From positions 1 through 40,414 of the forward strand of contig CACYSU010000018.1 in the NCBI GenBank assembly GCA_902777205.1: a DNA stretch of 40,414 nucleotides. The letters are read 5' to 3'. This document shows positions 19,190-21,853 of the stretch, piece by piece. Both the position numbers and the translations under genes were made by a program. Numbering within the stretch: position 1 is the stretch's first letter; every line of letters begins with the position of its first letter. The stretch is from an uncultured Rhodospirillales bacterium (lineage in GTDB: Bacteria > Pseudomonadota > Alphaproteobacteria > CAAGCB01 > CAG-977). The notes below the pieces were generated by a model, which searched no databases, was not told where the DNA came from, and saw only the letters and a program-made list of their open reading frames with translations.

Positions 19190-19258
19190 TTGGGGATTCG
19201 CGCTTGCCGGCGCGGTTCCGCAGCAATCAATTCGCACGAATCTTGAAAAGGTAAGGAC

Positions 19259-21853
19259 ATGGTAAGCGAAGTTAAAACAGCAGAAGATTTAGAGGTCGTC
19301 ATCTCTAAAGCGCACGAAGCGCAGGCCGTTTATGCCACTTATACGCAGGAACAGGTCGATAAGATTTTCAGAGCGGTTTCTCTGGCCGCGAACAAAATGC
19401 GTATTCCCTTGGCGAAAATGGCCGTCGAGGAAACAGGCATGGGCGTCGTTGAAGACAAGGTGATCAAAAACCACTTCGCTTCCGAATACATTTATAACAA
19501 ATACCGCGATATGAAAACCTGCGGCATCATTAAAGAAGACAAGGCCAACGGCATCAAAAAAATCGCCGAACCCATCGGTGTGATCGCCGGCGTCGTCCCG
19601 ACGACGAACCCGACCTCCACCGCGATTTTCAAAACGCTGATCGCTTTGAAAACCCGCAACGCCATCGTCTTTTCGCCGCACCCGCGCGCCAAAAACAGCA
19701 CGATCGCCGCTGCGAAACTGTGTCTGGAAGCGGCCGTCAAAGCCGGCGCGCCCGAAGGCATCGTCGGTTGGATCGACGAACCGTCCATCGAATTGTCCGA
19801 TATGCTGATGAAACACCCCAAGGTGGACATCATTTTGGCCACCGGCGGCCCCGGCATGGTCAAAGCCGCTTACTCCTCCGGCAAACCCGCGCTGGGCGTC
19901 GGCCCCGGCAACACGCCCGCCGTCATTGACGAAACCGCCGACATCAAAATGGCCGTTTCCTCGATCCTGCTCAGCAAAACGTTCGACAACGGCATGATCT
20001 GCGCGTCCGAACAATCCATCATCGCCGTTTCCGACGTGTATGACGAAGTCAAAAACGAACTGAAATACCGCGGCGCCTACATCCTGAACGACGAAGAACG
20101 CGAAAAGGTCGCGGCCATCATCCTGACCCCGCGCGGCGTCAACCCCGCGATCGTCGGCCAGCCCGCGTACAAAATCGCCGCTTTGGCCGGTTTTGAAGTG
20201 CCCGAAGAATCCAAAGTTCTGGTCGGCGAAGTCGAAGACGTGACGACGGCCGAACCGTTCGCGCACGAAAAACTGTCGCCGGTTCTGGCTTTGTACCGCG
20301 CCGAAAACTTTGAAGACGCGGTGGAAAAGGCCTACACGCTGGTCGATCACGGCGGCGCCGGCCACACGTCCGTGCTGTACACCGACGAACGCAAGGAAGA
20401 CCGCATCAAAGCGTTCGGCAACAAGATCCACACGGGGCGCATTTTGATCAACACGCCCGCGGCGCAAGGCGCGATCGGCGATTTGTTCAACTTCAAACTG
20501 GAACCGACCCTGACGATCGGCTGCGGTTCGTGGGGCGGAAACGCCACCAGCGAAAACGTCGGCCCGAAACACTTGCTGAACATCAAAACCGTCGCAGAAA
20601 GGAGAGAAAATATGCTCTGGTTCAAAGTTCCGCCTAAAGTTTACTTCAAACGCGGGGCAATTGATCCGGCTCTGCGCGAATTGAAAGGCAAGAAAAAAGC
20701 GTTCATCGTCACCGACCGCTTCCTGTTCAACTCCGGTATGTCGAAAAAGATCACCGACGTGTTGGAAGAAATCGGCGTCGATTACCAGATTTTCTTCGAC
20801 GTGAAGCCCGATCCCGATCTGTCCACGATCAACAAGGCGTTCACGATGGTCAAAGCCTACGAACCCGACGTGTTCATTTCCATGGGCGGCGGTTCGCCGA
20901 TGGACGCGGCCAAGATCTTGTGGTTGATGTACGAACAGCCCGATGTCAAATTTGAAGACGTCGCCATGCGCTTTTTGGATATCCGCAAGAGAATTTGCGA
21001 TCTGCCCGCTTTGGGTCAGAAAGCCGACATGGTCGCCATTCCGACGACATCCGGCACGGGTTCCGAAGTCACGCCGTTCGCCGTTATCACGGACGACAAG
21101 ACGCACATCAAATACCCGATCGCCGACTATGCGCTGACCCCGACCATGGCCATCGTCGATCCGGATCTGGTTGACACCATGCCTCCCGGACTGTGCGCGG
21201 CCGGCGGTATCGACGCTTTGGTTCACGCCGTCGAAGCCTATGTTTCCATTATGGCGACGAACTTCACGAACTCCATGGCTTTGGAAGCCGCGAAAAAGGT
21301 GTTCAAATACCTGCCGCGTTCCTACCACGAAGGCAAAAACGACCCGTTGGCGCGTGAAAAAATGCACTACGCCGCGACGTTGGCCGGTATGGCGTTCGCG
21401 AACGCGTTCCTGGGACTGTGCCATTCCATGGCGCACAAACTGGGCGCCATGTACAACGTGCCGCACGGCATCGCCAACGCGTTGCTGATTTGTCAGGTCA
21501 TCCGTTTCAACGCGGCTGACGCGCCGGCGAAACAGGCCGCTTTCGCGCAGTACAAATACCCGAACGCGAAGGAAAAATACGGCCAAATCGCCAACCAGCT
21601 GAAACTGGGCGGCAAGAATGACGACGAAAAGCTGGAATTGCTGATCAACGCCATTCAGGGTCTGAAAAAAGAAATCAACATTCCGCTGTCGATCCGTGAA
21701 TACGGTATTCCGGAAAAAGAATTCTTTGACAGACTGGACGAACTGACCGAAATGGCGTTCGACGACCAGTGCACGGGCGCGAACCCGCGTTACCCCTTGA
21801 TGAAAGAAATCAAGGAACTGTACATCAAAGCTTATGAAGGCATTACTGATTAA
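19259..21853 (+). CDS. adhE: Bifunctional acetaldehyde-CoA/alcohol dehydrogenase AdhE
   Basis: Reduces acetyl-CoA to acetaldehyde and then ethanol, regenerating NAD+ in fermentation; AdhE forms long cytosolic filaments (spirosomes). The 864-residue protein has an N-terminal aldehyde dehydrogenase (about 1-440, catalytic Cys248 in [16 protein letters not shown] at 216-222) and a C-terminal iron-dependent alcohol dehydrogenase (about 452-864). The latter shows [44 protein letters not shown] and VPHGIANA, which supply the NAD and iron sites. The ATG at 19259 has AAGGTAAGGAC upstream. A Rex operator covers its start site. Oddly, an excellent ribosome binding site and in-frame ATG sit at the domain junction. 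Confidence 0.97.
20598..20614 (+). promoter_or_regulatory. Internal ribosome binding site and in-frame ATG at the AdhE domain junction
   Basis: AAAGGAGAG (20598-20606) lies five bases before an in-frame ATG (20612-20614), codon 452. The Shine-Dalgarno is written by adjacent AGG and AGA arginine codons, where most arginines in the neighbouring genes use CGN. Initiation here would give a 413-residue protein that is exactly the alcohol dehydrogenase domain ([15 protein letters not shown] onward). Confidence 0.55.

What the first reader, a model, noticed from the sequence alone, without database searches (positions are those of the whole stretch)
20598..20614. Internal translation start that would release the alcohol dehydrogenase half of AdhE
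A near-perfect Shine-Dalgarno, AAAGGAGAG, sits five bases before an in-frame ATG (codon 452), exactly where the aldehyde dehydrogenase half ends and the iron alcohol dehydrogenase half begins. It is spelled with adjacent AGG and AGA arginine codons, while most arginines nearby use CGN. The methionine itself is conserved in E. coli AdhE, but there is no need for this codon choice. A separate 413-residue subunit could cap or alter AdhE filaments, or add alcohol dehydrogenase activity without the aldehyde half.
Basis: partly seen in the sequence, partly recalled or inferred. Interest (0 to 1): 0.6.

Follow-up and report, generated by a model that had tools for sequence, protein, structure and literature searches.

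The report
Conserved hidden start inside adhE gene
Inside the gene for the two-part fermentation enzyme AdhE, exactly where the first enzyme ends and the second begins, there is a strong ribosome landing site kept unchanged across distantly related gut bacteria although the protein does not require that spelling, so these cells probably also make the second enzyme on its own.

Summary
AAAGGAGAG (20598-20606) precedes in-frame ATG codon 452 of adhE (19259-21853, +) by five bases, at the aldehyde/alcohol dehydrogenase junction. The AGG-AGA spelling is not codon bias. In the window's family 11 of 12 species keep it, while AGG is used at only 6 of 244 other Arg codons of the same genes. In 85 adhE genes, column R448 is the most extreme synonymous outlier of 445 (z 27.8; next 12.4). 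Elsewhere in these genomes Arg-Arg is spelled AGG AGA in 2 of 95 pairs (Gastranaerophilales) and 0 of 141 (alphaproteobacteria), against 59/59 and 11/12 here. An 81-gene clade shows no codon change at 448-450. The site is absent in cyanobacteria, Collinsella, E. coli and most Elusimicrobiota, present in Ruminococcus albus: a lineage trait. Best explanation: a selected internal translation start making a 413-residue alcohol dehydrogenase (about 0.72). An elongation pause is the main rival. No protein evidence exists here. From memory, C. acetobutylicum adhE was reported to yield both products (Thormann 2002; not readable here), so the phenomenon is probably not unprecedented; I found no report of its deep conservation.

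The parts
19259..21853 (+). adhE, bifunctional acetaldehyde-CoA/alcohol dehydrogenase, 864 aa
   Evidence: NCBIfam NF010378 1403 bits against cut-off 951
19248..19257 (+). weak Shine-Dalgarno region of the full-length adhE start (AAGGTAAGGA)
   Evidence: read; anti-SD duplex -4.0 kcal/mol
19259..20611 (+). aldehyde dehydrogenase half plus linker (codons 1-451)
   Evidence: TIGR02518 match to residues 14-447
20598..20606 (+). internal Shine-Dalgarno AAAGGAGAG, spelled by GAA AGG AGA G
   Evidence: synonymous conservation; codon-pair control
20607..20611 (+). 5-nt A/T-rich spacer AAAAT
20612..20614 (+). proposed internal start codon ATG (M452)
   Evidence: ATG in 85/85 genes; protein-conserved as well, so not by itself evidence
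20612..21853 (+). predicted 413-aa ADH-only product, with NAD motif GGGSPMD and the conserved Asp/His motifs of iron alcohol dehydrogenases
   Evidence: matches PDB 6scg/6sci (E. coli ADH domain alone) and 3zdr from its first residue
20627..20629 (+). V457 GTT, a second synonymous-invariant codon 16-18 nt into the predicted ADH ORF in the 81-gene clade
   Evidence: 0 codon changes against a median of 16 for Val columns; meaning unknown

Best explanation
The junction of adhE carries a selected internal ribosome binding site. Ribosomes initiate de novo at M452 on the adhE mRNA and make a 413-residue iron-dependent alcohol dehydrogenase besides full-length AdhE. SHOWN: the site, its strength, spacing, position at the domain boundary, and purifying selection on its synonymous codons in several lineages. 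INFERRED: that initiation happens; that the product is a stable dimeric ADH (from the E. coli ADH-domain construct that starts at the equivalent residue); that it adds NADH-dependent ADH capacity and can join or end AdhE filaments through the ADH-ADH interface, since it lacks the linker needed for the domain-swapped dimer. The role in filaments is the weakest step (about 0.3 given that the protein is made).
For: AGG AGA in 11/12 family genomes while the flanking GTN and GCN codons vary. Strongest synonymous outlier of 445 columns over 85 genes from alphaproteobacteria, Gastranaerophilales and Endomicrobium. Not codon-pair bias: AGG AGA 2/95 and 0/141 of other Arg-Arg pairs. No codon change at 448-450 in an 81-gene clade, other Arg columns 1-17 changes. 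Present in Ruminococcus albus at 61% protein identity, and Subdoligranulum, with 85% GC3, has AAG AGG AGG GTC AAC ATG. Internal SD stronger than the gene's own SD in 10 of the 11 family genes that carry it. Region around the ATG is less structured than most of the gene (101st of 850 positions). Cyanobacteria, whose SD use is weak by established knowledge, keep the RRENM protein but spell it mostly CGG CGG. The ADH half from E. coli residue 451 folds as a dimer (PMC7470043).
Against: No ribosome profiling or N-terminal peptide data for any of these organisms. M452 and both Arg are protein-conserved, so the ATG carries no independent signal. The spelling is lost in G008 (CGC CGC), Collinsella, cyanobacteria and most Elusimicrobiota (AGA CGC) without loss of AdhE, so it is not essential to AdhE. 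Low structure is partly a result of A-richness. Genes sampled are related, so the number of independent retentions is small (5 label changes on the tree).
Confidence: 0.72

Rival explanations
1. The AGGAGA codons are a programmed elongation pause (anti-SD pairing by the translating ribosome or two rare Arg codons) that helps the aldehyde dehydrogenase half fold before the alcohol dehydrogenase half is made.
For: Sits exactly at a domain boundary; AGG and AGA are rare in the window; the same conservation would be expected.
Against: The pause would come while the last 30-40 residues of the first domain are still in the exit tunnel (established ribosome geometry); a folding pause is expected further downstream. 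It would not need start-like spacing to an ATG. In AT-rich Gastranaerophilales AGA is the commonest Arg codon, so rarity is not what is kept; AGG at 448 specifically is. Lactobacillales genes in which M452 is replaced by Pro also lack the SD, though these are only three genes.
Confidence: 0.15
2. Codon bias, codon-pair bias or recent horizontal transfer from an AT-rich donor left the codons as they are; no function.
For: The alphaproteobacterial genes are closest to those of AT-rich Gastranaerophilales.
Against: Other Arg codons of the same genes have changed to CGN: AGG 6/244, AGA 43/244 elsewhere in the 12 family genes. Even in the AT-rich group AGG is not the usual codon (345 of 4055 Arg) and AGG AGA is 2/95 of other Arg-Arg pairs. 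Mean pairwise codon identity of conserved columns in the family is 0.48.
Confidence: 0.05
3. A fossil: AdhE arose by fusion of an aldehyde dehydrogenase gene with a downstream iron-ADH gene, and the ribosome binding site of the second gene survives without present use.
For: Position and architecture are what a fusion of neighbouring genes would leave.
Against: Neutral synonymous sites are scrambled at this divergence; zero changes in an 81-gene clade need present selection. May be the origin, not the reason for upkeep.
Confidence: 0.04
4. The SD-like stretch stimulates a -1 ribosomal frameshift that ends translation just after the first half, giving an aldehyde-dehydrogenase-only protein.
For: 60 of 85 genes have a -1 frame stop four codons after M452.
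Against: That stop is a by-product of Phe-Lys spelled TTT AAA; it is not conserved in the window's family, whose window copy has TTC AAA. No canonical slippery heptamer is present.
Confidence: 0.02

Closest known systems
Clostridium acetobutylicum adhE (sol operon), reported to be translated into full-length AdhE and a separate butanol dehydrogenase domain (Thormann et al. 2002, J Bacteriol 184:1966)
   Same: As I recall the abstract, the same gene family and the same two products.
   Different: Content is from memory: the paper is not held (only its reference was seen) and pSOL1 is not in the plasmid collection, so whether the start is at the equivalent Met with the same SD is untested. The conservation across phyla shown here was not found described.
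In-frame internal translation starts giving N-terminally truncated proteoforms (for example the clpA 65-kDa product, arcB, infB)
   Same: SD plus in-frame start inside a coding sequence, truncated product; alternative starts found by Ribo-RET tend to have a stronger SD than annotated ones (PMC11005335), as here.
   Different: No profiling data here; the AdhE site releases a complete second enzyme and is conserved between phyla.
Recombinant ADH domain of AdhE (PDB 6scg/6sci E. coli, 3zdr Geobacillus)
   Same: Starts within two residues of the M452 equivalent and is a stable dimer.
   Different: Made by cloning, not by the cell.

Membership tests
AdhE, bifunctional acetaldehyde-CoA/alcohol dehydrogenase | matches the equivalog model above cut-off over both halves | tested here: met
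   NF010378 1403.1 bits against 951, residues 4-862
In-frame internal translation start | SD with start-like spacing before an in-frame start codon | tested here: met
   AAAGGAGAG-AAAAT-ATG; duplex -9.0 kcal/mol
In-frame internal translation start | SD kept beyond protein and codon-usage constraint | tested here: met
In-frame internal translation start | product is a complete foldable unit | tested here: met
   homologous ADH domains solved alone as 6scg/6sci and 3zdr (dimer in solution)
In-frame internal translation start | initiation seen in cells | not testable with these tools
   needs ribosome profiling or N-terminal proteomics
Co-translational pause site | location lets the upstream domain clear the exit tunnel | tested here: not met
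   site is at the boundary itself (codons 448-449; ALDH family match ends at 447), with the last 30-40 residues still in the tunnel by established geometry
C. acetobutylicum-type dual-product adhE | same SD and ATG in the C. acetobutylicum gene | not testable with these tools
   record and paper not held

The most novel reading that the evidence does not exclude
A phylum-spanning, selected internal ribosome binding site makes AdhE a two-product gene: the free ADH dimer sets filament length or ADH-to-ALDH ratio, with its SD written in the very linker codons that the full-length protein needs for filament assembly. In E. coli AdhE deletion of residues 446-449, the equivalent of these codons, is reported to affect the linker and dimerisation (PMC12204686).
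Probability: 0.3. Interest if true: 0.75.

Novelty: new member of a known kind. Interest (0 to 1): 0.58.

Why it matters
AdhE is a central fermentation enzyme and a target for biofuel engineering, and it works as filaments (spirosomes). If many gut and rumen anaerobes also make the alcohol dehydrogenase half alone, then the subunit make-up of their filaments, the ratio of the two activities, and the interpretation of adhE knock-outs and transplants all change: moving or recoding adhE by codon optimisation would silently delete the second product. The claim is directly testable with two synonymous codon changes.

Tried and rejected
C. acetobutylicum pSOL1 was looked for under six accessions and by two protein searches and not found. 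Viral contigs hold no relative. The 16S 3' end was not found in the assembly, so the anti-SD is assumed from the SDs of the window's genes, such as AAAAAAGGAGGCGGAATG. A second phylum search repeated the cyanobacterial set. Anti-SD energy alone is not specific: Met548 and Met200 score nearly as well, apparently because of protein-determined Gly codons, so the argument rests on codon choice. A tree test over all 162 genes, including lineages that lack the site, ranks 449 first but 448 only fourth of 17 Arg columns; the invariance appears within the carrying clade. That clade was chosen as one with at least 90% carriers, so its zero at 448 and 449 is partly by selection; searches do not depend on that choice. 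The frameshift idea was checked and dropped. Literature searches found no description of this site.

Full report
What is there. The window holds adhE at 19259-21853 (+), 864 codons, an AdhE by the NCBIfam equivalog model. At the junction the sequence reads GCA GAA AGG AGA GAA AAT ATG CTC TGG, with AAAGGAGAG at 20598-20606 and ATG at 20612-20614, codon 452. All numbers in the finding are right. Twenty-one of 26 arginines of adhE are CGN; in 29 ORFs of the window AGG and AGA make up 4.1% and 3.7% of Arg codons. Among internal in-frame start codons of those ORFs only two have a strong SD at start-like spacing, and this is the only ATG.

Close relatives. The family holds 12 genomes in three genera; all have the RRENM peptide, and 11 spell it AGG AGA GAA AAT/AAC ATG, one CGC CGC. 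In the same 12 genes the other Arg codons are AGG 6/244 and AGA 43/244. The neighbouring Val, Ala, Leu and Pro codons vary freely; mean pairwise codon identity of 374 protein-invariant columns is 0.48. Anti-SD pairing at the internal site is -9.0 or -9.1 in all 11, usually stronger than at the gene's own start (-2.8 to -10.8).

Distant relatives. Eighty named loci were fetched by peptide patterns that do not include the two arginines: alphaproteobacterial rumen and gut MAGs, many Gastranaerophilales (non-photosynthetic cyanobacterial relatives) and Endomicrobium. In a codon alignment of 85 genes the AGG at 448 is seen 76 times where the genes' own codon usage predicts 6.8: z 27.8, first of 445 columns, the next being 12.4. 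Sequences are related, so z is a ranking device, not a probability; the comparison with other columns of the same genes carries the argument.

Codon-pair control. In other genes and places of the same loci, Arg-Arg is spelled AGG AGA in 2 of 95 cases in the Gastranaerophilales-like set and 0 of 141 in the alphaproteobacterial family, against 59/59 and 11/12 at this site. Neither codon usage nor codon-pair preference explains it.

Tree control. On a tree of 162 genes the carrier state changes five times. In the largest clade of carriers (81 genes, 5.4 substitutions per site in total) there is no codon change at 448, 449 or 450, while other Arg columns show 1 to 17 changes. That clade was picked as one with at least 90% carriers, so its zero is partly by choice; the tests are free of that choice. 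V457 (GTT) is invariant too, against a median of 16 changes for Val columns; I have no explanation.

Where it is absent. Photosynthetic cyanobacteria spell the same peptide mostly CGG CGG or CGC CGG, Collinsella CGC CGC, most Elusimicrobiota AGA CGC or AGA CGT, E. coli has KRAENM with CGA GCT. Ruminococcus albus has AGG AGA GAG AAT ATG, Subdoligranulum AGG AGG GTC AAC ATG in a gene with 85% GC3. Some other alphaproteobacterial families carry it as well. So the protein sequence is general, and the ribosome-binding spelling is a trait of certain lineages of gut anaerobes.

How it most likely works. A strong SD at the classical spacing, an invariant ATG, relatively low RNA structure (101st least structured of 850 positions in the family) and a boundary position that releases a complete enzyme fit de novo initiation. 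The product begins within two residues of the start of the E. coli ADH-domain construct solved as 6scg/6sci, which runs from residue 451 to the C-terminus and is a dimer in crystal and solution (PMC7470043). The SD is written in the codons of the linker; in E. coli, deletion of linker residues 446-449 is described as disturbing the domain-swapped dimer, and a second interface of the filament is formed by ADH domains only (PMC12204686). From this I infer that ADH-only dimers could add ADH activity and could end filaments; neither is shown.

Rivals. An elongation pause would give the same conservation and cannot be excluded by sequence alone. It is less likely because the spacing to the ATG is that of a start, because the first domain would still be partly in the exit tunnel, and because AGG rather than rarity is conserved in AT-rich genomes. 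A codon-usage or transfer accident is contradicted by the controls. A fossil of gene fusion may be the origin but does not explain upkeep. A frameshift is not supported.

Known or new. Internal in-frame starts are a known kind. From memory, Thormann et al. 2002 reported that adhE of C. acetobutylicum is translated into AdhE and a separate butanol dehydrogenase domain; I could only see the citation, not the text, and could not fetch the gene. If right, the present site is a new member, and its contribution is deep conservation and a defined two-codon test. Searches of the held literature found no mention of it.

Limits. No translation data; MAG sequences; the anti-SD of this organism was not read directly; few Bacillota could be reached; carriers are phylogenetically clustered.

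Noticed in passing
window 20627-20629: V457 codon GTT is invariant in the 81-gene clade (median Val column 16 changes), 16-18 nt into the predicted ADH ORF; unexplained.
   Followed up: partly
window 19259-21853: R687 and R48 are conserved as CGT and S431 as AGC beyond codon usage (z 12.4, 9.2, 10.9); possibly other synonymous constraints in adhE.
   Followed up: no
window 19259-21853: The alphaproteobacterial AdhE is closest to Gastranaerophilales and Endomicrobium AdhE (70-76% identity), which suggests transfer among gut anaerobes.
   Followed up: no
L200: Subdoligranulum adhE (85% GC3) has AAG AGG AGG GTC AAC ATG at the junction, a near-perfect SD at a different protein sequence; possible independent case.
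   Followed up: no
G300 (genome of L050): One genome holds two adhE-like junctions, one spelled AGG AGA and one CGC CGT.
   Followed up: no
L113: Kovacikia minuta plasmid adhE is split into two pieces by tblastn, perhaps a broken gene or sequencing error.
   Followed up: no
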